A DNA stretch of 30,093 nt from a virus, in the IMG/VR virus record IMGVR_UViG_3300025280_000116, positions 1 through 30,093 of that record; one strand, 5' to 3'. The translations under genes and the position numbers were made by a program. Each line of letters begins with the position of its first letter. The stretch's first letter is position 1. The notes beneath the pieces are model-generated. The model was not told the origin of the DNA. It did no database searches and saw nothing but the letters and a program-made list of their open reading frames with translations. Positions 11,159 through 30,093 of this stretch are shown in pieces.

Positions 11159-11623
11159 CTAATTTGTCAAGGTCTCGATAGCCTTAACAAAATCTTCCAC
11201 CCTTACTGGTGTCTGTTCCTTCCATTTAGATTGTCCATTTGTACCAGAACCTGTAGAAATTTGGTTGATGGCTTCCTCATAATCCCTAGCTTTCAAAGCT
11301 TTATAAGCTGAAGGAAACTTATGCTGCCAATTTGTACCAAGTTGAAAATTCACTGAGCCTAAAGCCAATAAGAAATCCAGATTATTTATACCTAAGTCAT
11401 GGAGTTGTTGGGCTGCTGAGTACCATGCTTTTTCAGCATCCTTTGATAGCCAAGTATCTAGTATGTCTGCTTCAATGACCTCACCTACAGCATACTGATC
11501 ATTCTCTGCAGAGCTTAGTACGTGTCCAACACCACAGGTAGGATTGCCTAGTGTATCTAAATAGACCTCTTCCCTATAGCCTTCCCTGAGTTTAAGATGG
11601 TCTAAGAAGGTTTGATAGATCAT
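11159..11623 (-). CDS. GH24 lysozyme (T4-type endolysin)
   Basis: 154 residues. The N-terminus holds the T4-lysozyme catalytic triad at exact spacing: E14 (REGYR), D23 (VYLDT) and T29 (GNPTCGVGH), matching E11, D20 and T26 of T4 lysozyme. It cleaves the peptidoglycan sugar backbone to release virions. No signal peptide or N-terminal anchor is evident, so it needs a holin to reach the wall. T7 itself uses an amidase (gp3.5), so this phage differs. The gene lies 36 bases after the giant ejection protein and before a set of small membrane-protein genes, one of which may be the holin. Confidence 0.9.
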   Translation of the reverse strand: MIYQTFLDHLKLREGYREEVYLDTLGNPTCGVGHVLSSAENDQYAVGEVIEADILDTWLSKDAEKAWYSAAQQLHDLGINNLDFLLALGSVNFQLGTNWQHKFPSAYKALKARDYEEAINQISTGSGTNGQSKWKEQTPVRVEDFVKAIETLTN

Positions 11624-11659: not shown

Positions 11660-14600
11660 TTAATCATTGTATGTAATTTTAGATTGATAAGACTTCCAAG
11701 TGTCTTCGTCCATAATGTCCGACACAGGAATATTTATTTTTATAGGAACATAGTTAGCTTTTCGATTTTCTTTCTTTGCAGTCTCCTCATCAGGTAATAC
11801 ATAAGCACCATATTTTTCAGCTAGTCTCATTGCTCTTCGTTCTACAGCTCTGTAATCTCCAGTAAACATACTTTTTAATAAATTTATCCCTTGTTTTAAA
11901 AAATTATCCCTGCCACCCTGCCTATAATTAAAATCATATTCATCATAAACTTCTATATTTGCAGAGTTATAAGGTTTTTTGTGTGCTATTTTTATAATGC
12001 TTGTTCCAAGAACTTGATACACAGGAAGAGTTCCTTCGCTCTGATACAGCCACTTATGAGGTATACTAATTGTATTAGCACTTGGGTCTATGTTTTTACT
12101 TCGGGTGGCAAAAGAACTTCGATATCTGTCTGGTCCAAATAGGGATGCTACGTCATCCTGTATTGATTCAAGCTCTTCTTTAGTAAACCAATCTTCTGTA
12201 ATAGTTTCTTTTTTTCTTTTTATAACAGCATCTGAATATAATCTAAAATCTGTACTTGATAGTATATCTTTAGTAGTTTGTGTGAACTCTTTACCTTTAT
12301 CCAGTGATCGTTTTATGGTAGCAAGAAACTTATCTAAAACATTATCTTCTTCTGCTGAACTAGTTCCTTCAGCAAAGCCTAACCTATCCATCTGTCCTAC
12401 TAGTCCACCTTCTTTCTTAAATAAACGAGCTGGTTTAGTTAATAAGTTTCTTCGTAGTTCATCAGTTAAAGTTATATAAGGTACTTCATAGGCTTCTGCA
12501 CCTGTTGATTCTAAGAAATCAAACCAATCCATAATATCATCTATATTTTTTTGAGTTGTAGGTGGACTTAATGGTTGCCACAAGCCAGAAGGTGTTTCTC
12601 CAAAGTTTATGAGATCAGATAAAAATCTTACTTCTTCTCTAGTTAGGTTAAGTAAATGATAATCATCACCAAATTCTTTTTTAGCGTTTACTAGAATTTC
12701 TAATTCTCTTTTATCACGTTCTACATAAGGTACAATAGTATCAGCTAAATCACGATCTCTTCTTCTAGTAGCTCTTTCCGAGCGTGTAGTACCTTCAAGA
12801 AAACCTGCTTGTTGTTTTATTCTTGCATCTAAATCATTTCTAGAAATCTTAAGCTCTTTACGTACCTTTTGTAGTCTTTGTAAAGTTCTGCGACCATCTT
12901 CTGAATCTTTGATAGCTTCTTCAAGCTTGTTTGGAGTACTTCCACGTGGGGCAGTTTCCTGCAATTTATTTTGTCTTGCCATCAAGCCAGCTAACTTCCT
13001 TTCCCACTCTGTAATAGCATCATCCAAACCGGGTATCATATATTCTTCAACAGGTCCAGTGTTCTTATAGACAAAAGCAGGAGCATCTTTTGTAGGGAGG
13101 AAAGGATACGTTTTGTATTGTACCTTACCACCAAACTCTTTGGCAACATCTCTCATATCAGCTACAAACTGTCCTTTGGTTGGATGATACCACTGTGTTA
13201 ACGATGCTTGAGGCACATGAATCCCTCCCATTGTATTAACAAGGTCCATATGATTAAGAGCTACTTCATCTATGGAGGGATCGTTAGCTTCATGTCTCAA
13301 CCGAGCCAGTAAAGCCATACGATAATCGTTGGATTTAAAAGGTTCTTTAATCAATCTATCTGTGCCATCACGTTGCAGTTCATCTATGAACTTGACATAG
13401 CCCTCTTTCTCAGTATCACCTTTCTTTCGTTTAGTTGCTCTGGTCCAACCGATTGTCTTTGCACCAAAATGTGTCATCGGCATCTCCGACACACCTCTAG
13501 ATTGCTTCCATAACTCTGCATCATTTAAATAGATTCTAACCACATCATAGTCTGCTATATCTGCAGAGACTCCACCTAAGATAGCTTCTTCACCAGCACC
13601 TTGCTCTCTTAGTGCATTTGCTCTGTTTATGTGTTGTACTTTAATATCTTTTAGCTTATTAAAGACTCCTTGTGATGCTGCTACGATTTGTTCTTTAGTG
13701 AACTCTGGTTTAGGTGCTGTTTTTATTTGGTCCAATACTTGTATATTTTCTTTTACTTTTAGTAATCTTAGTTTCTCAAATTGCTTTGCTCCTGTTCCAA
13801 GCCTATCACCAAAGGTAATAGTTTCTATACTTTCATAAACAGAAGGTAAGTCCTCTGCACCTTTAGTTGTTCGTATAATTTCTTTAAACGCAGGTACTAA
13901 AGCCCTATATTCTCTCTCTAAAACTTCACCTAATCTACGTTCTTCTCGTGGTGCATAATTATATTCATCACTCAATTGATACATTTCATCTAAAATCTTA
14001 ATCTCGTTTTGAATTTTTTCTGCCTTTTTAGGAAGTGTATCTGCTGCCAGATAATCTTTAACACCCTCAATCTCAGCTTTCTTTAGACCTGCCTTGCCTA
14101 ATTGTTTTTCCATTCTCTCTACAGTTAATACTGGAATACCTTCTTTATTCTTTATAAAGATTTTACTATTCTTTGGCAAGTTCTGCAGAGCTTCAAACGA
14201 TTTTGAATACAAACCTAGTGGTGCTCCTTGAGTCCATTCAGTAAACCTTCCCCAACCTTCATCCCACTTGGCTTCAGCATATATATCCAAATCAGTTAAA
14301 TCGCCCTCATAATACCCTTCCTCTCTTGCCATTATCTCTAATTCTTCGAGGTTTCTTTCGTACCACTCATCGAAAGACTCTGTGCCTCTTCCTAGTCTAG
14401 CTTCTTTTTCAGTTATTGGCTTATAACGAGTCATCTCGCCTTTTTCTTCTAGGTATTTACCAGTCTTTGTTGTTCTAAATTGGTTATTGTTGAAGAGGAC
14501 ATAGTTAGGTCTAGTACTTCCGGCAGTCGTATACCTGATACCATCGTAACCTAATTCCTTTAAAGCGTTTCTTGCTTTAATACTTTGTTGGATATTGAAT

Positions 14601-17600
14601 AGGTGTTGGTTAGCTTCAGTAGCTTTTCCTTGCCTAATAAGAAATTCAGTCTCATCATACTCATCAAGAAGATCAGAGACTATTCTTGAAGCAGTCTTGT
14701 TGGGGAGTAATGAGTTTTCTATAATATTGTTACGTCTTGTAACATTTGGGTTGAGAGAACGAACAAACTCTGCACCTAGTAACTCGCCTTCTTTTATTGG
14801 ACCTAGATTTAAAGGATTAACCAGTCTCACTTTACCTGTGTGTACATTAGTCTTTGGAGCTCTTGTGATATCTCCGGTGAGGTCAACTGTTTCTGCTCGT
14901 AGATAAGGTCTAATTATGGAAGTACGTTCTCTTACTGCGTAGTCTAAATCAGATTTTTGTCGACTGAGCATATCATCTAACCTTTCTTTATTCAAAGGAA
15001 ATCTACTCTTCCCTTTCAACTCATTCATCTCTCTTATGTCTCCACGAATATGGTTTATTCTTTTATTTAGCCGTAGTATTTGTTTCTTATCTTTTTCAGA
15101 TAATTCTTTGCTGATTTTTAAACCTACTTTACTAACTGTACTTTTGTAGTTTTTGAAATTGTAATCCCGCATAAGACTATGCTGATAATGCTGAAGTTCT
15201 GCTCGTTCTAGAAGTGGGTCCAGATGTTGAGCTATGCCTTCAATAAAATCTGCTTCTATTCTGTTCCCTACTCTTGTTAGTAGTTCTTCAGTACCCGGCT
15301 GACCTGCTATTCTTGAGCTAATTTCTTGTTGATCTCTTCTTATTATATCACTTATTTCTGGAATAAATCCTTTTTCCTTATCTACATAAGATTCAACACC
15401 CTCTCTAAAAGTTTTCCCTACCAGCATACTTTCATCGCCCACGTGTGCTCCAACCATAGTGGAATATCTTAACTCTTCTTCCAGATCAGAAATTTTATTA
15501 CTATACGAATAACGTAGCACATCGTCTTCATCAAAGTAAGCCGAGTCGTCAGCAAACTTCTTAGCTTCTTTAGGTGTATAAATACTAACTGTATCTTCAG
15601 ATTGGAGAACTGGTGTATCCCTTCTCACATCTTGAGTTAAGTGTTGCGTGAGTTCATCCAGTTCTGGTTCTCTATCTAAACCGAGTAAAAGTTTTTTTAG
15701 TGACTTAGTAGGTGCAAAACGAGCTAAACGACTGGCAACTCCACCAAAAATAAAACCTAATCTTTCTTCTTCATCTTGGGCTAATATTCCTCCTTGTTCA
15801 GTATAAGGTCTACCAGTCATACGATCTATACGTTCATCAGGTTCAACAGGTACATTAGGTACATTATGAACTTCACCACCTTTTGCATAAAAAGCCTGTG
15901 TAACTTTTTTAGGTTTCTTATCTTTAGAACCTCTAGCAAATTTTCTTATTGCTTCTCTCCATTCATAAGGATAGGCACTATAAAAAGGTAAATTTGTAGC
16001 ACCAATTTCAGTAAATCCTTTTCGATAAAGAATAGCATCTACCACATCTTGAGCTACTGGACCGAAGGGAGTTTTAACCATTGCTCCGACTTGTCCACTA
16101 CCATATTCTTTGTTTCTAATAAATCTTTCAACGTAATCAAAGGGACCTAAACCTCCCCATCTTTGTACAGCTTCAGTTATAACACGACCATCCTCTCGTT
16201 CTAAACTCCTGCCCTGACTCCTCATTGCATTGGTAAAAGTTGCCACAGCCGTCATAGCTAAAGCAGTACCAATAATCTTAGGTGATGTTTGTAATTTATG
16301 TTCAAAAGCTCCTTCATTGATCCAGCGTTTAAGAATCGTGTTATTAAATACAGTTGGGTAACCTGCAAACTGTGAAAATATTTGTCCGGCTGGATGTGAG
16401 AACCACAAAGGTCTGTTCGCCTCTGCTGTGGAGGGATTCAAAATAATCTCTTTAGTAAATCTGCCAGCTCCTCTCAAATAACTATTCATATAAAAAGCAG
16501 CTCCTTTAGCTACGCCTTCATCAAATGTACCATCTGGTGTTAATGAATTTTTATACCATTTCATTCCCTCTTTTTCATCAATACCCAATTCCCAAAGTTG
16601 TTTAGTTAAATATTCTCTTTTACTATTACTTAACTTAGCAGTACCTTGAACATCATCATGAAGTTTCTGTATATTCTCTCTGATTAAACGTTTACCAGTT
16701 GTGAAGGATGCTACTTGTACTGCTCCTGTCCACTGAGTTAAGAAGTTAGTTTTAAAGAAAGCATTTTGTACTTTTCTTAATCTCGGACTATGAGCAGCTT
16801 CACCATATAAACCTTCAATAAGACTTTGCACAGCTTGTTCCATTGCCAAGCCTGATTTGTACGCTTCTTCCCAATATTCATCACCAATATCTTTAAAACC
16901 TTTAACGTCTTTTCCACTGGTTCGTCTTACAAAGTCTGTGAATTTATCTATATCTTTTTTAACTCCTTTTACTAAAGCTTTACCTACTTCTTTAGCTGCT
17001 GGTAATTTACCGGTATCAATTCTAGTTAAAAGAATCATAGGCTCAGTTAAACTTGATATAGTTGCAAAAGGTAAGTGAGCCATCTGTTGTGATAACTTAA
17101 GAAAATCTGTGCCCCAACGTAAACCTCCTTTAAAAGCAATCTTATCAGTATCTAAACCAGTTATCCTTTCATGCATAATTCTAAGTCTTCTAATTGCTTC
17201 ATTAATTTCATCTACTTCTACACCAGAATCTCCTAATTCTCTGCGTATTGGATCAAGCCAATCTCTTTCAAAATCCTGTACAGTTCTACCGAAAAACTTA
17301 GTTCTGGTAGTAGCTCTGGCTGCGTCTGTTATGTAGTTGGTAAGTACGTCTTCAACATCTCCTTCTAAAAAAGGAGCTAGGTCCTGATCTGAAATTTTAT
17401 CAAAGACTCTGTGTTGTAAAAAACTATGCCCTCCACCAGCATTATTTTTTGAACTGTATTGGAAGGGGCTAGTTTTACGATCTATGATATCTTGAACGAT
17501 TGCTTCAGATTTTAAGCGTTTAGCTTTCTCCATATTACCTTCTGCATCCTTTAAGAAGTTTCTACCAAAAGATTCTTTATCAATTAAATCAGCATCGGCT

Positions 17601-19279
17601 CGAAGACCTTTTACTTTATTACCTACAATTTCTGTTTCTGTAGCATGAAGAATTTTATCAGTATCTATATCTTTTGCAAAGATTTCTATATAATCTTTTT
17701 GAGAATAAGAATTTTTAATATCAGCATGACCAGACTTATAGATTAAATTTTCCAAGTCTTTTCTATTATCAACAACAGCCTGATATTTAAAGAAACGAGG
17801 AAAATATCCCTTAATATGTTGAGAATTAAATCTACCGGAAGCTAATAAGCCCTGATCAGCAGCCTGTTTAAAGATATTATCTAATAAGAGTCTAACATCT
17901 TTAGCTGCATCAATAACAACTCTATCTATAAGTTGTCCTTCATATTTAACATTACCAGTACTTATAGCACGATCTAATAACTTTTTATCTCTTAATAAAT
18001 AAGCAAGAGCATCGTTCTGATCTTGTCTAAGAGTATTTCTCCAAACATCACTTCCTCTATAGAGATTATTTAATGCCTTTCTCATCTCATATAAATTTGT
18101 ATGTAGAACATTACTTAGGTCTAAACCATAAGAGTCAGCCTCTACAGCTTGAGCACCTTTAGTAAATGTCCTAGCCCAATCATATCTAAACTTACCTAAC
18201 AATTCCTGCATCTTAGCAGAGTTATCAGCAAAGCCTAAGAACTGTGCAACAGGTTTACCAAAAGTTAGAGAAATAGCTCGTTTACCTTTTTCTAATTTTT
18301 TAGGAGGTTCTTTAACAGCATTATTTGCTGATAGAAGATCATAAGCTTCTGCTTCTGCTTTACGATCTACTTTTGTTGTTATAAGTTCACCTTCATTCGA
18401 AAATTTATTTAATTTTCTATAAAGAGCAGGAGCTAATACAGTTAAACCTCCAATAGTACCACCAAAAAAACCTCCAAGTGTTGTACCTAAAGCTGTAGAA
18501 ATTGCAACTTGAGATTTATCCAGACTCTCTCTTAAACCTAATTCAACATCTACATTTTGTAAAAAATAATCGTGTGATCCAACCCACGCTGCTCCTTCGG
18601 CTGCTCCTAATATAGCAGGTCTTTTAGCAGCTTCTAAAACTTCTTTAGTTGCTTTGGATTTGACGTATTTCTTGAGTCCTTGTTTGGCAGTCTGTTTAGC
18701 TGCAACGGCTGCAGCACCTGACATACCTCCAGTTAAAGGAAAGAAAGCGACAGCTAACCAGTTAAAAGGATCAGCTAACAGATCAACTGTAGCGTTGCCC
18801 ATTAATTTCATGAATTGTCTGGTACTGCCTAGATCGGCATTTTGAAAGGTATCTTTAAGATAAGTATAATCTTGTTTTGCTTGGTCTGACCATTCTCCAA
18901 CTTCAGAAGCTAGGTCCATTGCGGAGTAGATGCTGAACTCAGGATCACGGAGATACTCAAAGATTTCTTCATCTTTACCTATCTCCTCCATAAAGCGTTC
19001 AGCACGAAGTTGAAACTCAGGGTCTTTTTCTAAATCATCTAAGGTATAAGCTCCTCTGCGAGTGGAGGGCTGTAGTGGGGCATTTAGACTTTGAGAATAT
19101 TTGTCTAAATAATTTTGAGTACCTATGTCTCGTGTAGGTCTATCTACTTCTGGTGTTATAGAATTTTGATAAGCACTATAAGCAGCTATAAAGTGAGGAC
19201 TCTCTTTTCTTTTTTCTTCTTCTTCAGGTTCAGTAGATTGGAGAGCATTAAGGTAATCGTTTAATACGTTATTTGGCAT
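11660..19279 (-). CDS. Giant internal virion/ejection protein with polyvalent-protein-like domains
   Basis: 2539 residues. Position after the other internal proteins and the Gly-rich hydrophobic stretches (about 165-200 and 257-283) suggest a T7 gp16-type role in carrying DNA through the envelope. Residues 800-1120 resemble the LPD38-type region of large polyvalent proteins, ending in GGEVHNVPNVPVEPDERIDR (about 1131). An ADP-ribosyltransferase-like segment covers about 1480-1600 (RLVNPLNLG, then LGYDGIRYTT and NYVLFNNNQF). About 1930-2080 matches the phage pattern HF-x-IGWTRAT followed by FIDELQRD. The C-terminus has GAYVLPDEE and KANYVPIKINIP. I saw no lytic transglycosylase motif. Domain names are pattern recognition from memory, and enzymatic activity is unproven. 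Confidence 0.75.
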   Translation of the reverse strand: MPNNVLNDYLNALQSTEPEEEEKRKESPHFIAAYSAYQNSITPEVDRPTRDIGTQNYLDKYSQSLNAPLQPSTRRGAYTLDDLEKDPEFQLRAERFMEEIGKDEEIFEYLRDPEFSIYSAMDLASEVGEWSDQAKQDYTYLKDTFQNADLGSTRQFMKLMGNATVDLLADPFNWLAVAFFPLTGGMSGAAAVAAKQTAKQGLKKYVKSKATKEVLEAAKRPAILGAAEGAAWVGSHDYFLQNVDVELGLRESLDKSQVAISTALGTTLGGFFGGTIGGLTVLAPALYRKLNKFSNEGELITTKVDRKAEAEAYDLLSANNAVKEPPKKLEKGKRAISLTFGKPVAQFLGFADNSAKMQELLGKFRYDWARTFTKGAQAVEADSYGLDLSNVLHTNLYEMRKALNNLYRGSDVWRNTLRQDQNDALAYLLRDKKLLDRAISTGNVKYEGQLIDRVVIDAAKDVRLLLDNIFKQAADQGLLASGRFNSQHIKGYFPRFFKYQAVVDNRKDLENLIYKSGHADIKNSYSQKDYIEIFAKDIDTDKILHATETEIVGNKVKGLRADADLIDKESFGRNFLKDAEGNMEKAKRLKSEAIVQDIIDRKTSPFQYSSKNNAGGGHSFLQHRVFDKISDQDLAPFLEGDVEDVLTNYITDAARATTRTKFFGRTVQDFERDWLDPIRRELGDSGVEVDEINEAIRRLRIMHERITGLDTDKIAFKGGLRWGTDFLKLSQQMAHLPFATISSLTEPMILLTRIDTGKLPAAKEVGKALVKGVKKDIDKFTDFVRRTSGKDVKGFKDIGDEYWEEAYKSGLAMEQAVQSLIEGLYGEAAHSPRLRKVQNAFFKTNFLTQWTGAVQVASFTTGKRLIRENIQKLHDDVQGTAKLSNSKREYLTKQLWELGIDEKEGMKWYKNSLTPDGTFDEGVAKGAAFYMNSYLRGAGRFTKEIILNPSTAEANRPLWFSHPAGQIFSQFAGYPTVFNNTILKRWINEGAFEHKLQTSPKIIGTALAMTAVATFTNAMRSQGRSLEREDGRVITEAVQRWGGLGPFDYVERFIRNKEYGSGQVGAMVKTPFGPVAQDVVDAILYRKGFTEIGATNLPFYSAYPYEWREAIRKFARGSKDKKPKKVTQAFYAKGGEVHNVPNVPVEPDERIDRMTGRPYTEQGGILAQDEEERLGFIFGGVASRLARFAPTKSLKKLLLGLDREPELDELTQHLTQDVRRDTPVLQSEDTVSIYTPKEAKKFADDSAYFDEDDVLRYSYSNKISDLEEELRYSTMVGAHVGDESMLVGKTFREGVESYVDKEKGFIPEISDIIRRDQQEISSRIAGQPGTEELLTRVGNRIEADFIEGIAQHLDPLLERAELQHYQHSLMRDYNFKNYKSTVSKVGLKISKELSEKDKKQILRLNKRINHIRGDIREMNELKGKSRFPLNKERLDDMLSRQKSDLDYAVRERTSIIRPYLRAETVDLTGDITRAPKTNVHTGKVRLVNPLNLGPIKEGELLGAEFVRSLNPNVTRRNNIIENSLLPNKTASRIVSDLLDEYDETEFLIRQGKATEANQHLFNIQQSIKARNALKELGYDGIRYTTAGSTRPNYVLFNNNQFRTTKTGKYLEEKGEMTRYKPITEKEARLGRGTESFDEWYERNLEELEIMAREEGYYEGDLTDLDIYAEAKWDEGWGRFTEWTQGAPLGLYSKSFEALQNLPKNSKIFIKNKEGIPVLTVERMEKQLGKAGLKKAEIEGVKDYLAADTLPKKAEKIQNEIKILDEMYQLSDEYNYAPREERRLGEVLEREYRALVPAFKEIIRTTKGAEDLPSVYESIETITFGDRLGTGAKQFEKLRLLKVKENIQVLDQIKTAPKPEFTKEQIVAASQGVFNKLKDIKVQHINRANALREQGAGEEAILGGVSADIADYDVVRIYLNDAELWKQSRGVSEMPMTHFGAKTIGWTRATKRKKGDTEKEGYVKFIDELQRDGTDRLIKEPFKSNDYRMALLARLRHEANDPSIDEVALNHMDLVNTMGGIHVPQASLTQWYHPTKGQFVADMRDVAKEFGGKVQYKTYPFLPTKDAPAFVYKNTGPVEEYMIPGLDDAITEWERKLAGLMARQNKLQETAPRGSTPNKLEEAIKDSEDGRRTLQRLQKVRKELKISRNDLDARIKQQAGFLEGTTRSERATRRRDRDLADTIVPYVERDKRELEILVNAKKEFGDDYHLLNLTREEVRFLSDLINFGETPSGLWQPLSPPTTQKNIDDIMDWFDFLESTGAEAYEVPYITLTDELRRNLLTKPARLFKKEGGLVGQMDRLGFAEGTSSAEEDNVLDKFLATIKRSLDKGKEFTQTTKDILSSTDFRLYSDAVIKRKKETITEDWFTKEELESIQDDVASLFGPDRYRSSFATRSKNIDPSANTISIPHKWLYQSEGTLPVYQVLGTSIIKIAHKKPYNSANIEVYDEYDFNYRQGGRDNFLKQGINLLKSMFTGDYRAVERRAMRLAEKYGAYVLPDEETAKKENRKANYVPIKINIPVSDIMDEDTWKSYQSKITYND

Positions 19280-21081: not shown

Positions 21082-21714
21082 TTATTTCCTTTGTAATAGA
21101 CTATCTACATCTTCAGTAACTTCTTCTTCTTCAACTGGTCTACCTAAAAGACTTGCTTCAATTTTACTGGTATCCACTTCTTCTAGTTTTTCTATCAACT
21201 CTGGTGGAATAGTTGCTGAACTAACTGTTGGTTTTAAATCAGACAAACTTTGTGGTCTTCTTAATTCATCTTGAAAATTTTTAGTTATTCTTACATCTTC
21301 TGCAATATCTTCAGCATCCATTTCTTCTCTATCCATATGCTCATTTTTATATATAGTTGGATTAGATATGCCTACTTTTTCTGCAATAGCTAATAACATA
21401 TACATAGTTGGTTCAATAAGTAATGTCATTAGGTCAGGATTAAATTTACCTTTAACAAAGCCTGTAAATAATAACATCTGAGCAATATCACTTATTGGCA
21501 TTTCTTTAGCCATTAAGTCCACCACAGTTTCTAAATTTTCTTCTTCTAATAAAGATAAGAATACTTTTTCAGTAGCTTCAGTTAGTCCTGTCATTTCTGG
21601 AGGTTGTTCCCAAGCCTGTTTACTATTAGGACTATTTGTTAAAGAACCACCAGGAATCGGTCCATCCAAAGGATTAACTAATTCTAAAGCTTCTTGACTT
21701 AATTCTCTTGCCAT
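21082..21714 (-). CDS. Acidic virion-module protein of unknown function
   Basis: 210 residues, acidic (EEEEVTEDVDSLLQRK at the end) and Leu/Met-rich in the middle (KEMPISDIAQMLLFTGFVKG, then LIEPTMYMLLAIAEKVG), which could form amphipathic helices. No family recognised. It lies between two likely ejection proteins with 2- and 4-base gaps, so it is expected in the virion or its assembly pathway. The counterpart by position would be T7 gp14, but that is only inference. Confidence 0.5.
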   Translation of the reverse strand: MARELSQEALELVNPLDGPIPGGSLTNSPNSKQAWEQPPEMTGLTEATEKVFLSLLEEENLETVVDLMAKEMPISDIAQMLLFTGFVKGKFNPDLMTLLIEPTMYMLLAIAEKVGISNPTIYKNEHMDREEMDAEDIAEDVRITKNFQDELRRPQSLSDLKPTVSSATIPPELIEKLEEVDTSKIEASLLGRPVEEEEVTEDVDSLLQRK

Positions 21715-22646: not shown

Positions 22647-25601
22647 TTAACCTCCTCCTTCTAGAAAGCCATCAAACAACGAGGTAACAGCTTTCATTCT
22701 TGTTTCCCAATCAGCTTCTTCATAATTATCACTTTCGTTGCCAAGCATAGCTATATACATGGAAGCTTTTCGTTGTTCATAGTTATCATAAGTTCTAAAT
22801 GCATAGTCTGCTTGATCTCTTAATTCCTGCCACATAAATGCTTGAGCCTGTGTAGACAATTGAAAAGCATTCTGTGCATTGAATTGAACTACAGCATTTT
22901 TAGCTGCTGTATCTAATGTACTAATATCTCTTCGCCATTTTAAATCAGCTTGTAAAATTTGATTAGCAGAGGTAGTATTAAATTGTTCTCTAGCAAAATC
23001 TTGTTTAGCATTAAACTCATTTATAGTATTTTTCATTTGTGCATTAAATTTCTCAACATCAGTTTCGTTAGCAACTCGTCTAGCTTCTGCAGCATTTTCT
23101 TGTTGCGTATTAAATTGTTCCATTGTATTAAGCTGTGTCTTATTATATTGATCTGTTTGTGCAGCTAAATTAGCCATAAACTGATCTGTTTGCATTTGAC
23201 TTGATGAATTAAATTGTTCAGCAGCATTAGTAGCAGATTGATTACTTAACAGTCTTTGTTGATGTTGTTGTCCTCTTAATATTTCTGATTGTTGTCTTCT
23301 ATCCAAATTTGACATATCCATAGCTAAGAAACTTTGAGCGTTCTGTGCAGCTAGTCTGGTATTAGAATCTAATTGAGCTACATCTAATTGTGCCATTGAC
23401 GCAGCGTTTTGTAAAGTAGCCTTCTGTTCATTATCAGTATCAGTAAGTGTTACAGTCTGTAAAAATTTCTTATTAGATAATTCTCTTTGAACATCAGAAC
23501 TAAACTGAGCTAAGTCTAAATCAAATACATTATCAGCATTAGATATAGCTGTCTGTGTTCCTAATTGTGCATCTAAACGTGAAGCCTGTGCTTCGATATC
23601 TCTTTGTTGTAAAACACTCTCTTTAATAGATGTTGCATTTGACTGTGCCATAGGCATAGCTGTTTGTACAATAGCATTAAATAAAGCATCTCTACCAACT
23701 GTAGAAACATCTAGTCCTCTCTCTGCCATAATCTGATTAACAGCAGCCACAGCAGGATTTGCCCATTGTGGAATATTACCATCTTGAAGACCTGATAATA
23801 AATTATCCAGTTGTGTACTTACTAAAGCTTCGTTAGGTAATCCTTCTACCATACCTCGTTCTGCTTCAGTAAAGTCCATTAAACGAGCTTCTAAGTCTGC
23901 AGGATTATTGCCAAGCTCTGCTATCATTTCTTCAGATAAACCTGCTCGTCTTAATTGTTTCTTAGCTCGTAGAACTTTAGGTAAGTTTGTACCAGTAACA
24001 CTAACAGCAGTTGCTATAGCTTCAGGTCTAAACGTACCAACAACTCTATCAGCTAATGCACCAGCAGCTTGTTGAGTATCTACATCTACGCCAGTGGCAG
24101 CTAAAGTCATAGCTTGTGTTTGCATATTAGCTACTGCCTGAGGGCTTACATTACCAGTTACATCGTCTATAATAGGAGCTTCAGCTTCAGTAACTTCTTT
24201 AGCAGTATAAGTATCTGCTGTTACTTCTCTAGGTGCAGCAGCAGTTACTGCTGTACCAGTTTCAACTTGTTCTCCAACAGTAGGTAATTGAGCTGTTTCT
24301 GCGTCAGGTCTATAAGTAGGGTCCATTGTTTCATAAGTACCTGCTTCTCCTTCTGGCACTTTATAGACACCTGTTTCAGGATCAATAACAGCACCTGCAG
24401 GTAAACCTTCTCCTCTAGCAGCAGCTTCTAAACCTTCTGCACTTCTAGCATATCTTTCTTGACGTTCTTTTATTTGTTCAGGAGTTAAGCCAGTATCTTG
24501 ACCAAAACCAATATCAGGTTTTATAAATGTTCCAGAAGTTGAATCCCAAAGATAACCTTTCTCACGTTGTAAATCTATCATTGCTGGAGTTGGTACATGC
24601 TTTCCAGCTTCTGCATCCCAAGTCCAATAATCATCACTTTCACCTTCAACAGGTGTAGTAACTATAGAGCTTGATCCAGTTTCTTCCCATCTTGCACGAC
24701 CTTCTAAAAATTCTATTGCTTCATCTTGAGTTCTAAAAACTAAGTTATGTGATTCTCCCGGAACTCTACTCCAACCTTCATCCGTAAAACCAATCTGACC
24801 ATTAGTAGGATCAATCCAGAATATATCCATTAAATAGCCAGAAGAACGATCACCTTCTATATTATATAAATTTCTGTTACTATTACCTTCCTCACTCAGC
24901 CATTGTCCTAAAGATGAACCTGTGTCATATGGGTCTTTTTCAGGTTCTACTGCTGCAGGTGCAGGTGCAGGAGCTGGTGCAGGTGCAGGAGCTGGTGCAG
25001 GTGCAGGAGCTGGTGCAGGTGCAGGAGCTGGTGCAGGTGCAGGAGCTGGTGCAGGTGCAGGATCACGAACTGGGTCCCATAAAGGATGCCCCGGTCCGAA
25101 AGGTATTGGTGGTGGTAGTGTATCTATAGGTGGTGGAGCTACTGGAGGTGGTGGAGCCACAGGTGGTCTTTCAACTGTTTCAGGACCAGTAGTAAGAGCT
25201 GTGGTTGGTGTTGTACCACCACTAGAAACTATAGGAGCTGTAGGAGCTGCTGGTTGTTGAGATAAAAAAGTAGAACCCGGCATTCTTGCTTCCTGTTCTT
25301 GTGCAGCTTTAAGATGTCTTTGGTATCCTTCAGGGTCTGCTGCTACAGCTTTAGGGTCTACACCCGGTGGGAGTGTAGGAGCTGGTGTAGTAGGAGCAGT
25401 AGGCTGAGTTTGAGTAGGTCTAGGTTTTCTTCTTTGAGCTTGTTGCTTTAACTCTTCTTCTTCTGCTCGACCTCTTGGTCCACCACGTTGTAAAGCCACA
25501 CGACCACCCTTACGCATGTCTAAACGTGCAGTACTATCTTTACGAGAGCGTAGTTTTTTATTCTTTCTAGCTATTTTTTTATTTTTACTATTTCTTGCCA
25601 T
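22647..25601 (-). CDS. Large structural protein with Pro-Ala tract and QFN-rich helical region
   Basis: 984 residues. A basic N-terminus (KNKKIARKNKKLRSRKDS, then RLDMRKGGRVALQRGG) is followed by a Pro/Thr/Ala-rich region with 18 consecutive Pro-Ala dipeptides, then an acidic Gly-rich part. The C-terminal third is long Ala/Gln/Asn-rich helix with recurring QFN or EFN about every 11-14 residues, a likely extended coiled coil. It ends with the pattern WRRDISTLDTAAKNA...LWQE-like RDQADYAF that I recall from marine podovirus virion proteins. Function is probably structural, in the tail or inside the capsid. Confidence 0.65.
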   Translation of the reverse strand: MARNSKNKKIARKNKKLRSRKDSTARLDMRKGGRVALQRGGPRGRAEEEELKQQAQRRKPRPTQTQPTAPTTPAPTLPPGVDPKAVAADPEGYQRHLKAAQEQEARMPGSTFLSQQPAAPTAPIVSSGGTTPTTALTTGPETVERPPVAPPPPVAPPPIDTLPPPIPFGPGHPLWDPVRDPAPAPAPAPAPAPAPAPAPAPAPAPAPAPAPAPAPAAVEPEKDPYDTGSSLGQWLSEEGNSNRNLYNIEGDRSSGYLMDIFWIDPTNGQIGFTDEGWSRVPGESHNLVFRTQDEAIEFLEGRARWEETGSSSIVTTPVEGESDDYWTWDAEAGKHVPTPAMIDLQREKGYLWDSTSGTFIKPDIGFGQDTGLTPEQIKERQERYARSAEGLEAAARGEGLPAGAVIDPETGVYKVPEGEAGTYETMDPTYRPDAETAQLPTVGEQVETGTAVTAAAPREVTADTYTAKEVTEAEAPIIDDVTGNVSPQAVANMQTQAMTLAATGVDVDTQQAAGALADRVVGTFRPEAIATAVSVTGTNLPKVLRAKKQLRRAGLSEEMIAELGNNPADLEARLMDFTEAERGMVEGLPNEALVSTQLDNLLSGLQDGNIPQWANPAVAAVNQIMAERGLDVSTVGRDALFNAIVQTAMPMAQSNATSIKESVLQQRDIEAQASRLDAQLGTQTAISNADNVFDLDLAQFSSDVQRELSNKKFLQTVTLTDTDNEQKATLQNAASMAQLDVAQLDSNTRLAAQNAQSFLAMDMSNLDRRQQSEILRGQQHQQRLLSNQSATNAAEQFNSSSQMQTDQFMANLAAQTDQYNKTQLNTMEQFNTQQENAAEARRVANETDVEKFNAQMKNTINEFNAKQDFAREQFNTTSANQILQADLKWRRDISTLDTAAKNAVVQFNAQNAFQLSTQAQAFMWQELRDQADYAFRTYDNYEQRKASMYIAMLGNESDNYEEADWETRMKAVTSLFDGFLEGGG
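24954..25061 (-). repeat. 18-bp tandem repeats encoding (Pro-Ala)18
   Basis: 108 bases encode 18 uninterrupted Pro-Ala dipeptides. The plus strand repeats GGTGCAGGTGCAGGAGCT as an 18-base unit (three dipeptides), so codon choice repeats as well as the amino acids. Pro-Ala tracts form stiff extended linkers. The number of units probably varies by slippage. Confidence 0.9.
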
Positions 25602-26202: not shown

Positions 26203-29200
26203 TTACTCCTTATTATTAAGTTGTTTTTCTAAATCTTCGACTTTTGCCGAGAGTTCTTTTATTGCATTGATGAGAGGTGTTATAAACATTTCTCTGGATA
26301 CTGATTGTCCATCTACAGTTTCATCCCACCCATTAAAAGTTGTATTACCTACTTTGTTCATAGCTTCTTTAACATCTTGTGCTAAAAGTCCATGAATTAA
26401 AGTTTCTGTGTCTTTTTCGCCTTTATTTAAACGAGTTGCTTGAAACTCAGGATCAACTTCTGCTTGTGGTTTCCAATTAAATGTAACTGGATTTAATTCA
26501 TTGATAAAAGCAAGACCTAAAGTATCATCATTAATATTCTTTTTTAATCTTTTATCAGATGTTTGAGTCCATGTATTATTAGAAGTAAAGTCATTATAAA
26601 CATGCCCTCCACTTGATCCTATATGTGTTCTATCGTTTGCCGTTCCAGTAAGAGAAAAACCTATAACATTTTGAGTGTTTGCTCCAGAAGCAGAAGGATC
26701 AGTTCCATAGCCTATACAGATGTTATGACCTCCAGTGGTTACAACATCTCCTGCGGAATGACCCAAATTAACATTATAATTACCTGTTGTGGTGTTTCTT
26801 CCAGCACCAATACCAACAGAAACACTCTCTGTACCTGACGTTAAGTTTTCCAAAGCACTCCAGCCTACTGCTACGTTAGATACAGTCGAATTTTGATTTT
26901 TTAAAGCATAATAACCAATAGCTACACTGTTTGCACCTGCTGTATTTGTTGACAGTGCATAAGTACCAATCGCTGTATTACTAGCACCAGTAGTTATTGC
27001 TGCTCCTGCGGCTATTCCCACAGCCGTATTACTTAGAGCTGATGTTAGTGAATCCAAACAATAAGCACCAACAGCAGTATTGTTGCCATAAGTGGCTAAT
27101 GTTAAAGCGTTATAACCAACTGCTGTATTATTATTAGCAGTTACATTTGCTGCTAAAGCACTCTTACCAACGGCTACGTTGGCTGTTCCTGTCGTGTTTG
27201 CTCCTAAAGCTGCATAACCCATTGCTGTATTATTATCTGCTGTGGTATTAGCGTCTAAAGCTAAAGTACCAACAGCAACATTAGAAGCACCAGTGGTGTT
27301 TGATAATAAAGCATTTTTACCAACGGCTGTGTTATTAGAAGCTGTGCTATTGCTATATAAAGTATTATTACCATAGGCTGTATTGCTAGCACCAGTGGTA
27401 TTTACTCTCAAAGCATCTCTACCAATAGCAGTATTATCATTTGCAGTTGTATTAGCACCTAAAGCATTAAAACCGATTGCTGTATTATAATCACCAGTTG
27501 TATTAGCGTCTAAAGCTGTAGAACCCACAGCTACATTACCTGTACCTGTCGTGTTTGCTGTTAAAGCAATATTACCCACAGCCGTATTACCATCTGCTGT
27601 CGTATTGGCATCTAAACATTGATAACCAAGTGCTGTATTACCAGCACCTGTCGTGTTTGCATATAAAGCCTGAGAACCTATACCAGTGTTGTTTGATCCT
27701 GTGGTATTTGCATACATAGCCTGAGAACCTATACCAGTGTTCTCTGTACCACTTGTATTTGAGGTTAATGCAACATGACCCATAGCAGTATTATAATTTG
27801 CTGTGGTAGCAGCATCTAAGGCTTGTACACCGATTGCTGTATTTCCAGTACCTGTCGTATTAACTAATAAAGAGTTCATACCAACTGCTGTGTTATTTGA
27901 TGCTGTTGTATTATCTCTTAATGCATTAACTCCTAAAGCAGTATTTAAACCACCAGTAGTATTTGCTCCTAAAGCATCAACACCTATAGCAGTATTATCT
28001 TCTCCTGTTGTATTAGCATCTAAAGCTTGATAACCCATTACTGTATTTTTATCACCAGTAGTTAAAGCTGCAAATACATCAATACCTAAACCAGTATTAT
28101 AATTTGCTCCACTAATAGTTCCTGTTGTAGCATCTCCCAACATAATTGAACCAGTACCAAAAGTCTTAGCATCTGATAAACCATCTAAATCTGATGCACC
28201 ACCACTTGCAGCATTTTCCCAAGCTACCCCACTTCCTGTTGAAGTAAGTACTTGTCCATCACTACCTTGTGCTCCACCAACTGTTAAATTATCTGTTTCT
28301 AGTGTTCCATCAACATCTACATTTCCAGATATATCTAAAGACCCTGCATCTAATTCACCTGCAATAGTTAATAAACCACTTGAAGGATTATAGGTAAATC
28401 CAGTATCTGTTTCAGCTCCTTGAGAACCTGTTGCACCATCTACGAATACAGGATATACAGTTTCATCTGTTGAGTTATTAGCACTAACTGTTACACTAGT
28501 TGCTAAGTCTGCTGTACCTGTAACATCTCCTGTTAATGGACCTGCAAAGGCATCTGATGTTACTGTACCATCAAAGAACGCATCTTTGAACTCCAAAGAA
28601 CTTGTACCTAAGTCTATTTCATTATCTGTTACTGGATATAATGCACTAGATGTTAATGTTAATCTAGCTGCGTTGTCTGCTTTGAAATCAATTTCATTTG
28701 CTGTTCCAAAGTCAATAGCAGTTTGAGAATCTTCTCCTAAGATTAAATCTGTAGCATATATTGAAGTTATACCTGTTTGAGCTGCGTCTACAGCAAGATC
28801 AACTGTATTATCTCCATCTTGATATGTTACTGTAATACCACTTTCAGTATTACTTGAGAACATAGCACCTGCTGTATCAGCTATATATTCTGCTAAAGTT
28901 GTACCATCTACTGTAATCGCATCAGCTTCTAATGTTCCGTCAATATCTGCGTTACCTGATACATCTAATGTAGTTAAATCTAACTCTCCTGCTATAGTAA
29001 CATTACCATCTGCTAAAGTTATTAAGTCTGTATCAGAAGTATGTCCAATAGTTGTTCCATTAATGATAACATTATCAACTGTTAAAGTTGTTAGTGTACC
29101 TAAACTTGTTACATTTCCTTGAGCTGCAGTATTTAATGTACCTGCAAAAAGTGTAGAAGTTAATAAACCACTAGAAGGATTGTATGTTAAACCTGTATCA

Positions 29201-30093
29201 CTCTCAGCACCTTGCGATCCTGTAGCTCCGTCAACAAAGATTGGGTATACTGTTTCATCTGTACTATTATTTGCAGAAATTGTAATATTATCTGCTGTTC
29301 CTGTTGTATCTTGGTTTAATGTTCCAATAACAAAGTCTAAAGTATTGTCTCCATCTTCGTAAGTAACTGTTATATTAGTTTCAGTATTCGAGCCAACCAT
29401 AGCACCGACTGTATCGGCTATGTATTCATTTAAAGCAGTTCCATCAACTGTATATGCATCTGCTTCAAGTGTACCATCTATATCGGCATTACCTGAAATA
29501 TCTAAACTTGTAGCATCAACTTCACCAGCAACTGTAACTACACCACTTGATAGTGTTATTAAGTCTGTATCGCTTGTATGTCCAATTACTGCACCATCAA
29601 TTGCAACATTATCTACAGTAAGTGCTGTTAATGTTCCAAGACTTGTTACATTTCCTTGTGCTGCTGTATTTAGTGTACCTGCTAAAAGTGTAGTAGTTAA
29701 AAGACCACTAGAAGGATTATATGTTAATCCTGTGTCGCTTTCTGCTCCTTGACTTCCAGTAGCACCATCTACAAAGATTGGATAAACTGTTTCGTCTGTG
29801 GAGTTATTAGCTGAAATTGTAATGTTATCAGCAGTACCTGTTGTGTCTTGATTAAGAGTACCTATAACAAAGTCTAGAGTATTATCTCCGTCTTCATAGG
29901 TAACTGTAATATTTGTCTCGGTATTAGAGCCTACCATTGCTCCAACTGTGTCAGCTATATATTCATTAAGAGCTGTTCCGTCTACTGTATAAGCATCGGC
30001 TTCAAGAGTTCCATCTATGTCTGCATTACCACTAATATCTAATGTGGCTGCATCTAATTCACCTGATATAGTGATGTTAGTACCACCTGTCAT
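26203..30093 (-). CDS. Trimeric tail fibre with collagen-free repeats and S74 autochaperone, 5'-truncated
   Basis: Host-recognition fibre, at least 1296 residues. The frame reaches the right edge, and the first in-window Met starts a GGTNITIS segment that looks internal, so the true N-terminus (tail attachment) is probably outside. Residues 11-368 are two 179-residue repeats, followed by a diverged third. Residues about 666-1140 are 28 tandem units of NTA-x-G-x-x-AL-x-x-NTT, 17 residues each, like the repetitive stalks of trimeric adhesins. From about 1175 the C-terminus is a Peptidase_S74 chaperone: SDKRLKKNI supplies the Ser-Lys active site that releases the domain after trimer folding. It ends in a coiled coil (AIKELSAKVEDLEKQLNNKE). 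Confidence 0.93.
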   Translation of the reverse strand: MTGGTNITISGELDAATLDISGNADIDGTLEADAYTVDGTALNEYIADTVGAMVGSNTETNITVTYEDGDNTLDFVIGTLNQDTTGTADNITISANNSTDETVYPIFVDGATGSQGAESDTGLTYNPSSGLLTTTLLAGTLNTAAQGNVTSLGTLTALTVDNVAIDGAVIGHTSDTDLITLSSGVVTVAGEVDATSLDISGNADIDGTLEADAYTVDGTALNEYIADTVGAMVGSNTETNITVTYEDGDNTLDFVIGTLNQDTTGTADNITISANNSTDETVYPIFVDGATGSQGAESDTGLTYNPSSGLLTSTLFAGTLNTAAQGNVTSLGTLTTLTVDNVIINGTTIGHTSDTDLITLADGNVTIAGELDLTTLDVSGNADIDGTLEADAITVDGTTLAEYIADTAGAMFSSNTESGITVTYQDGDNTVDLAVDAAQTGITSIYATDLILGEDSQTAIDFGTANEIDFKADNAARLTLTSSALYPVTDNEIDLGTSSLEFKDAFFDGTVTSDAFAGPLTGDVTGTADLATSVTVSANNSTDETVYPVFVDGATGSQGAETDTGFTYNPSSGLLTIAGELDAGSLDISGNVDVDGTLETDNLTVGGAQGSDGQVLTSTGSGVAWENAASGGASDLDGLSDAKTFGTGSIMLGDATTGTISGANYNTGLGIDVFAALTTGDKNTVMGYQALDANTTGEDNTAIGVDALGANTTGGLNTALGVNALRDNTTASNNTAVGMNSLLVNTTGTGNTAIGVQALDAATTANYNTAMGHVALTSNTSGTENTGIGSQAMYANTTGSNNTGIGSQALYANTTGAGNTALGYQCLDANTTADGNTAVGNIALTANTTGTGNVAVGSTALDANTTGDYNTAIGFNALGANTTANDNTAIGRDALRVNTTGASNTAYGNNTLYSNSTASNNTAVGKNALLSNTTGASNVAVGTLALDANTTADNNTAMGYAALGANTTGTANVAVGKSALAANVTANNNTAVGYNALTLATYGNNTAVGAYCLDSLTSALSNTAVGIAAGAAITTGASNTAIGTYALSTNTAGANSVAIGYYALKNQNSTVSNVAVGWSALENLTSGTESVSVGIGAGRNTTTGNYNVNLGHSAGDVVTTGGHNICIGYGTDPSASGANTQNVIGFSLTGTANDRTHIGSSGGHVYNDFTSNNTWTQTSDKRLKKNINDDTLGLAFINELNPVTFNWKPQAEVDPEFQATRLNKGEKDTETLIHGLLAQDVKEAMNKVGNTTFNGWDETVDGQSVSREMFITPLINAIKELSAKVEDLEKQLNNKE
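26674..28098 (-). repeat. 28-unit, 51-bp tandem array in the tail fibre
   Basis: 475 codons form 28 consecutive units of 17 residues (one of 16). Consensus N-T-A-h-G-x-x-A-L-x-x-N-T-T-G-x-x. The arithmetic is exact: 27 x 17 + 16 = 475. The last seven units are more degenerate. Such repeats build a trimeric beta-roll shaft whose length scales with unit number. Confidence 0.92.
28990..30063 (-). repeat. Two tandem 537-bp repeats in the tail fibre
   Basis: Copy 1 is 29527-30063 and copy 2 is 28990-29526, each encoding 179 residues. About 115 residues in a row are identical in protein, but many third positions differ. A third, strongly diverged copy starts at 28989. Confidence 0.9.

What the first reader, a model, noticed from the sequence alone, without database searches (positions are those of the whole stretch)
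11660..19279. A 2539-residue ejection protein that is also a polyvalent-type protein
The protein has the position and hydrophobic segments of a T7 gp16-type ejection protein. Its C-terminal 1400 residues, however, carry segments resembling domains known from polyvalent proteins that phages and conjugative elements inject to disarm host defence. If correct, this virion delivers effector domains into the cell together with its DNA.
Basis: partly seen in the sequence, partly recalled or inferred. Interest (0 to 1): 0.75.

Follow-up and report, generated by a model that had tools for sequence, protein, structure and literature searches.

The report
Phage ejection protein carrying effector-like domains
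A marine podovirus related to SAR11 phages has doubled the length of the protein that short-tailed phages push into the cell ahead of their DNA, and the added tail carries domains related to the "polyvalent" effectors that mobile elements send into hosts, so the DNA-injection machine probably also delivers effectors.

Summary
The gene is real: 2539 aa, minus strand, 11660-19279, with an intact near-identical copy in a second IMG/VR contig. Residues 1-1187 are a conserved, nearly all-helical core. Its AlphaFold model's only PDB match below E 0.05 is the ejectosome protein of phage ΦM1 (8vb2_A, E 0.006), and its sequence matches PHROG virion proteins.

About half of 71 non-redundant relatives stop just after a linker at residues 1131-1187. 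The others carry swappable C-terminal cargo: lysozymes, glucosaminidase, LysM, methyltransferase, cpYpsA and Pfam-certified ART-PolyVal. This protein has the longest tail, 1380 aa.

Within that tail:
- 1188-1640 is a divergent ART-like domain (profile match to ART-PolyVal-type ARTs, E 1.3e-6; histidine and tyrosine of the catalytic H-Y-D set replaced, D kept).
- 1860-2290 is the uncatalogued "EEIQSDW" domain, found elsewhere beside ART-PolyVal, LPD1, LPD39 and InPase (E 1.9e-6).
- 2330-2531 is a third phage module.

No Pfam LPD was found, ART chemistry is doubtful, and a counter-defence role is unproven. The architecture is a new variant of a known kind (N4 vRNAP is the precedent). Packaging and delivery remain untested.

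The parts
11660..19279 (-). Complete gene, 2539 aa: ejection-protein core plus C-terminal cargo
   Evidence: identical-length ORF in L002 with 2 nt differences
15890..19279 (-). Residues 1-1130: conserved all-helical ejection-protein core (hydrophobic stretches 174-194, 258-286)
   Evidence: 38 relatives, 29-54% identity; PHROG virion proteins; Foldseek top hit 8vb2_A ΦM1 ejectosome, E 6e-3
15719..15889 (-). Residues 1131-1187: linker 'AKGGEVHNVPNVPVEPDERIDRMTGRPY...DEEERLGF..GG' where relatives either stop or begin their cargo
14360..15718 (-). Residues 1188-1640: divergent ART-like domain (R1256, H1279, NPL 1488-1490, D1579, Q1600)
   Evidence: family alignment A4; hhalign to ART-PolyVal-type profile E 1.3e-6, prob 90.7; AF2 pLDDT 80-97 over the motif segments; residue table
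14870..15427 (-). Residues ~1285-1470: long helical insert within the ART-like domain, absent from all relatives except a shorter one in L231
12410..13702 (-). Residues ~1860-2290: 'EEIQSDW' polyvalent-associated domain (THF..1936, FIDELQRD 1964-1971, EPFKSN 1979, WYHPTKG 2030, YITLTDELRRNL 2268)
   Evidence: L231 homolog E 1.9e-27; hhalign E 1.9e-6, prob 89.6, score 43 vs shuffled maximum 22
12362..12424 (-). Residues ~2286-2306: second GG linker 'KKEGGLVGQMDRLGFAEG'
11687..12292 (-). Residues ~2330-2531: third module ('VYDEYDFN'), shared with cargo of L053/L138; weakly with HTVC115P gp40, L097, L151, L236
   Evidence: phmmer E 1e-9 range; hhalign E 0.003, above 60 shuffles
11159..11623 (-). 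Free-standing phage lysozyme gene; the homologous domain is fused to the ejection protein in L034/L057/L161
19283..21079 (-). 598-aa gene in the position of a T7 gp15-like ejection protein
   Evidence: gene order and size only; no significant family match
21082..21714 (-). 210-aa gene in the position of a T7 gp14-like ejection protein
   Evidence: gene order and size only

Best explanation
The gene encodes the large (gp16/TEP-type) ejection protein of a marine, SAR11-phage-like podovirus, to whose C-terminus effector modules have been appended after a conserved linker. In the virion it sits in the internal core. On infection it is unfolded, threaded through the tail and assembles the trans-envelope conduit. 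Because the C-terminal half of T7 gp16 is thought to project into the host cytoplasm, a C-terminal extension would arrive in the cytoplasm with, or just before, the DNA. There the ART-like domain (predicted to act on a host macromolecule with NAD+, if it is still active) and the EEIQSDW domain would condition the cell at the earliest phase of infection. The linker serves as a graft point where relatives gain, lose or exchange cargo. Shown here by sequence: the fusion, the core, the graft point, the mosaic cargo and the relationship of two segments to polyvalent-protein domains. Inferred: packaging, delivery, catalysis and target.
For: Core homology to virion structural proteins: phrog_7348 2e-48, phrog_6958 1.4e-17, phrog_30152 1.3e-09. 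The best PDB fold match of the core model is the ΦM1 ejectosome protein 8vb2_A, E 6e-3, prob 0.94, 1048 aligned columns, the only PDB match below E 0.05. Gene order with 14/15-like genes resembles pelagiphages HTVC104P, HTVC115P and Eistla. Of 71 non-redundant relatives with a stop codon, 32 end within 50 aa of the linker and 39 carry cargo. Relatives' cargo passes curated Pfam cut-offs: ART-PolyVal (L087, L097, L045), cpYpsA + DUF7831 (L129), Methyltransf_23 (L063), Glucosaminidase (L089), LysM (L151), Phage_lysozyme2 (L031), Phage_lysozyme (HTVC104P gp54). P0001's ART-like family matches the ART-PolyVal-type profile at E 1.3e-6, score 46 vs shuffled maximum 19.5. P0001+L231 matches the EEIQSDW profile at E 1.9e-6, score 43 vs shuffled maximum 22. 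Cross-controls are clean. EEIQSDW co-occurs with ART-PolyVal, LPD1, LPD39 and InPase in prophage proteins. T7 gp16-C is presumed to enter the cytoplasm (PMC8954989). Polyvalent proteins are typically encoded near late virion genes (PMC5512222).
Against: No Pfam model reaches its cut-off anywhere in P0001. The ART-like domain has R and H where polyvalent ARTs have the catalytic H and Y. Foldseek of its model found no ART. The core's match to ΦM1 has an E-value of only 6e-3 and a low TM-score from a model of mean pLDDT 61. No virion proteomics. The ART profile match rests on one 35-column block.
Confidence: 0.72

Rival explanations
1. The C-terminal 1380 residues are a structural or encapsidation module (as the 1400-aa C-terminus of N4 vRNAP is needed for packaging) built from degenerate, catalytically dead effector domains; they work in the virion or ejection channel, not as effectors.
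For: Two of the three catalytic ART positions are replaced across the ART-like family. Several relatives have lost the last strand, and L154/L242 have the cargo split into two ORFs. The N4 precedent is given in PMC5512222.
Against: Close core relatives do without any cargo (32 of 71), so it is not needed for assembly or ejection in general. Cargo elsewhere includes intact, curated enzyme domains. D1579 is invariant and R1256 nearly so.
Confidence: 0.3
2. The tail is mainly an envelope-penetration or lysis accessory: cargo serves peptidoglycan crossing, with other modules as passengers.
For: Many relatives' cargo is peptidoglycan-directed (lysozyme, glucosaminidase, LysM), and the lysozyme domain moves between fused and free forms.
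Against: P0001's own tail has no recognisable peptidoglycan-hydrolase domain. Its modules align with ART-like and EEIQSDW families. The lysozyme is a separate gene here.
Confidence: 0.12
3. The N-terminal 1187 residues are not a gp16-type ejection protein but some other virion or tail-associated protein, so the cargo is not injected.
For: No sequence match to any solved ejection protein. T7 gp16's N-terminal transglycosylase domain is not found. The hydrophobic stretches are N-terminal, whereas T7's are placed C-terminally.
Against: Fold hit to the ΦM1 ejectosome, gene order, PHROG virion-protein matches, and weak but significant match of residues 116-277 to the 1283-aa protein of pelagivirus Eistla that follows its 'internal virion protein D'.
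Confidence: 0.12

Closest known systems
Tetrameric ejection protein of T7 (gp16) and ΦM1 (8VB2)
   Same: Predicted helical core, size of the core (~1150 aa; ΦM1 chain 1103 aa), gene position after smaller ejection-type genes, best fold hit.
   Different: 2539 aa against the 609-1337 aa reported for gp16-like proteins (PMC8954989); cargo at the C-terminus; no N-terminal transglycosylase match; lysozyme is a separate gene.
N4-type virion RNA polymerase
   Same: Giant ejected virion protein with an N-terminal injection part and extra enzymatic domains, some with ART (PMC5512222).
   Different: No RNA polymerase or metallopeptidase domain found in P0001; the carrier core is of another family; cargo is swapped at a C-terminal linker.
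Polyvalent proteins (Iyer et al. 2017, PMC5512222)
   Same: Several unrelated domains in one polypeptide beside late virion genes; ART-like and EEIQSDW domains of that repertoire.
   Different: No LPD, MPTase, ParB or methylase/helicase model matches in P0001; the carrier is an ejection protein.
ART-PolyVal (PF18760)
   Same: Shared 'R..L..LGYDGI.Y...YVLF..NQF' block and NPL strand; profile match E 1.3e-6.
   Different: Below Pfam detection; catalytic H and Y replaced by R and H; ~185-aa helical insert.
Pelagibacter phages HTVC103P, HTVC104P and HTVC115P
   Same: Closest isolates by DNA polymerase (48.8% identity), same Hsp20-to-ejection gene layout, ejection proteins of 1638-1893 aa with C-terminal extensions.
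   Different: Their cargo differs: methyltransferase-like plus lysozyme in HTVC104P gp54, other modules in HTVC115P gp40.

Membership tests
Podoviral large ejection protein (T7 gp16 / ΦM1 TEP) | Structural similarity of the core to a solved ejectosome protein | tested here: met
   8vb2_A top hit, E 6e-3, prob 0.94, only PDB match below E 0.05; modest model quality, so a weak pass
Podoviral large ejection protein (T7 gp16 / ΦM1 TEP) | Gene directly follows two smaller ejection-type genes in the late operon | tested here: met
   210-aa and 598-aa genes precede it; same trio sizes in HTVC103P/104P/115P and Eistla
Podoviral large ejection protein (T7 gp16 / ΦM1 TEP) | N-terminal lytic transglycosylase domain (T7 gp16; not universal, absent in P22) | tested here: not met
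   no Pfam match in P0001; review says it is not conserved in P22 or Sf6
Podoviral large ejection protein (T7 gp16 / ΦM1 TEP) | Packaged in the capsid and ejected | not testable with these tools
   needs virion proteomics
Polyvalent protein (Iyer 2017) | Two or more domains of disparate type in one polypeptide | tested here: met
   ejection core + ART-like + EEIQSDW + third module
Polyvalent protein (Iyer 2017) | Contains domains of the polyvalent repertoire | tested here: met
   by profile-profile only: ART-like E 1.3e-6, EEIQSDW E 1.9e-6; no Pfam LPD/ART hit in P0001 itself
Polyvalent protein (Iyer 2017) | Encoded among late/virion genes (phage type) | tested here: met
Polyvalent protein (Iyer 2017) | Transferred into the host with the DNA | not testable with these tools
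   inferred from the ejection core only
ART-PolyVal PF18760 | Score above Pfam gathering cut-off (31.2 bits) | tested here: not met
   no hit in P0001; met in relatives L087, L097, L045
ART-PolyVal PF18760 | H-Y-D active-site set (strands 1, 2 and 5) | tested here: not met
   R1256 / H1279 / D1579 at the aligned positions; R in 14 of 16, D in 16 of 16 family members
ART-PolyVal PF18760 | ART fold | tested here: inconclusive
   AF2 strand order is compatible, but Foldseek finds no ART in PDB or BFVD, helical insert dominating
EEIQSDW polyvalent-associated domain (no Pfam entry found) | Ordered blocks HW/HF..R..R, EE[IL]QSD, PFK.W, TPEMR | tested here: met
   first three blocks aligned by hhalign E 1.9e-6; the last (YITLTDELRR) by eye only

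The most novel reading that the evidence does not exclude
Marine podoviruses use the large ejection protein as a general effector-delivery carrier: a conserved conduit core with a C-terminal graft linker onto which ART-like, EEIQSDW, YpsA/SLOG, methyltransferase, metallopeptidase-like and muralytic modules are swapped, so that the effectors enter the cytoplasm as part of the DNA-injection machine itself, before any phage gene is expressed.
Probability: 0.5. Interest if true: 0.8.

Novelty: new variant of a known kind. Interest (0 to 1): 0.62.

Why it matters
How phages act on the host before their first gene is expressed is mostly known from T4 Alt and N4 vRNAP. A modular cargo site on the ejection protein of very abundant marine phages would give a readable catalogue of early effectors, a way to predict them (sequence after the linker), and a natural experiment, since about half of the relatives carry no cargo. 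It would also make a testable case for ejection proteins as protein-delivery devices and give functional context to an uncatalogued domain widespread in prophages.

Tried and rejected
Direct Pfam, PHROG and PADLOC scans of the C-terminus found nothing useful. tblastn of C-terminal slices against phage records at E 10 gave no match. Single-sequence HMMER and hhalign tests of the EEIQSDW resemblance were not significant; only a deeper family profile plus the L231 homolog made it so. A re-alignment of full EEIQSDW domains from six loci was poor and was discarded. A5, a small profile of canonical ARTs from sister loci, did not match the P0001 ART family (E 0.23); the larger ART-PolyVal-type profile did. 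Foldseek of the ART model against PDB and BFVD: no significant match. Considered and rejected: chimeric assembly (independent contigs) and muralytic identity of P0001's own cargo. GG enrichment as a processing-site signal was left as a lead: 172 observed vs 106 expected in linker plus tail, but only 67 vs 54 beyond the first linker.

Full report
OBSERVATION. The gene is on the minus strand, 11660-19279, 2539 aa. The window is an IMG/VR virus record of 30,093 bases. Its DNA polymerase is nearest to Pelagibacter phages HTVC103P, HTVC104P and HTVC115P (48.8% identity). Those phages share the layout Hsp20, giant gene, ~600-aa gene, ~190-aa gene. A second contig carries the same ORF with two nucleotide differences.

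CORE. phmmer against 80 loci fetched through the neighbouring ribonucleotide-reductase gene showed that residues 1-1187 are conserved while the rest is not. A profile search with the core fetched 80 more loci. The alignment A7 holds 38 cores at 29-54% identity to P0001. PHROG matches are virion structural proteins and a 2564-aa 'endolysin' family whose C-terminus matches HTVC115P gp40. The AlphaFold model is nearly all helical (mean pLDDT 61, residues 340-950 well defined). Its best PDB match is 8vb2_A, the ΦM1 pre-infection ejectosome (E 6e-3, prob 0.94, 1048 columns); no other match is below E 0.05. ΦM1's ejectosome is made of a tetrameric and octameric ejection proteins that must pass a ~30 Å aperture (PMC11440229). 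I therefore take the core as a gp16/TEP-type ejection protein, with moderate confidence.

GRAFT POINT. The core ends in a recurrent linker, GG.V..VPNV..EPDERID..TG.PY...DEEDR..QM.RLGF.EGG. Among 71 non-redundant relatives with a stop codon, 32 end within 50 aa of it, and 39 continue for 119 to 1380 aa, P0001 being the longest. The cargo differs from phage to phage: ART-PolyVal above the curated cut-off in L087, L097 and L045; cpYpsA with DUF7831 in L129; Methyltransf_23 in L063; Glucosaminidase in L089; LysM in L151; Phage_lysozyme2 in L031; Phage_lysozyme in HTVC104P gp54. L087, L063, L045 and L089 carry a core of another subfamily, one the P0001 core did not detect at E 1e-3, in the same neighbourhood and with the same type of linker. 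The lysozyme that is a separate gene in the window (11159-11623) is fused to the ejection protein in L034, L057 and L161 (E ~1e-56).

CARGO OF THIS PROTEIN. (a) Residues 1188-1640 belong to a family of at least 15 relatives, most of them fused directly after the same linker. The trimmed family profile matches an ART-PolyVal-type profile built from prophage proteins at E 1.3e-6, probability 90.7, score 46.2; 60 column shuffles reached at most 19.5. The significant block is 35 columns (S..lR..LG YDGI.Y..Y.LF..NQF); a global alignment also pairs the first strand and the NPL strand. The AlphaFold model is confident (80-97) over the motif segments, but a ~185-aa helical insert dominates Foldseek, which found no ART. 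Polyvalent ARTs are defined by H-Y-D (PMC5512222). Here the aligned residues are R1256, H1279 and D1579; R is kept in 14 of 16 and D in 16 of 16 members. I call it ART-like, not a member of PF18760. (b) Residues 1860-2290 have one homolog, L231, which follows the ART-like domain in the same order (E 1.9e-27). Together they match a deep profile of the 'EEIQSDW' domain at E 1.9e-6, probability 89.6, score 43.2 vs a shuffled maximum of 22.3 over 80 shuffles. In five prophage-type proteins checked, Pfam has no model at that domain, but ART-PolyVal, LPD1, LPD39 and InPase flank it. A cultured pelagiphage, HTVC028P, has it in a 954-aa protein lying between two internal-protein genes. (c) Residues ~2330-2531 match the cargo of L053 and L138 (E about 1e-9) and weakly a module of HTVC115P, L097, L151 and L236 (E 0.003, above 60 shuffles). 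Cross-comparisons between unrelated profiles gave nothing.

MECHANISM. [quoted passage not shown] A C-terminal extension on such a protein would be delivered to the cytoplasm with the DNA. Polyvalent proteins are predicted to act in exactly that phase (PMC5512222). Steps shown here: fusion, core, graft point, mosaic cargo, domain relationships. Steps inferred: packaging, unfolding and refolding, cytoplasmic exposure, ART activity (I would give 35%), and a counter-defence role rather than takeover (25%).

NOVELTY. N4 vRNAP with ART or lysozyme domains is the established precedent for a giant ejected polyvalent protein (PMC5512222). Held papers gave no report combining pelagiphage ejection proteins with ART or polyvalent domains; subscription papers are not covered. 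I rate it a new variant of a known kind.

Noticed in passing
L246-L317 (72 genome loci), L175-L228 (54 viral loci), HTVC028P gp34 (L091:10054-12918): The 'EEIQSDW' domain is widespread in prophage and phage proteins of many bacterial phyla, yet no Pfam model covers it in the five proteins scanned; it sits beside ART-PolyVal, LPD1, LPD39 and InPase.
   Followed up: partly
L154 / L242 against L151 / L241: In near relatives the same ejection gene is intact (1899 aa) in one contig and split into 1130-aa and 356-aa ORFs inside the ART-like cargo in the other, a natural disruption of the cargo or a sequencing error.
   Followed up: no
L094, L095, L142, L233 (C-terminal ~250 aa): Closest sisters of this protein carry a second ART-type module with intact YHGG and VYTS motifs after the ART-like domain (weak profile match, E 7e-4).
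   Followed up: partly
L031:16815-18176 (-): After a Phage_lysozyme2 domain the tail contains EPHEYMHRGM, an HExxH metallopeptidase-like motif.
   Followed up: no
window 15719-15889 and 12362-12424 (-); N-terminus of 22647-25601 (-): GG-V linkers recur at module borders and also near the N-terminus of the 984-aa structural-type protein; GG is enriched in linker plus tail (172 vs 106 expected), but only marginally beyond the first linker (67 vs 54).
   Followed up: partly
window 22647-25601 (-): 984-aa protein with a long proline-alanine repeat; the opposite strand shows the matching GAGAGA open frame (24922-25260, +).
   Followed up: no
window 26203-30093 (-): Fibre-like protein running off the contig, with near-identical long repeats and a C-terminal 'SDKRLKKNI' segment typical of self-cleaving intramolecular chaperones (from memory, not tested).
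   Followed up: no
L129 (L243) tail: Ejection-protein cargo with cpYpsA (SLOG family, E 5e-27) and DUF7831, suggesting a nucleotide-sensing module as injected cargo.
   Followed up: partly
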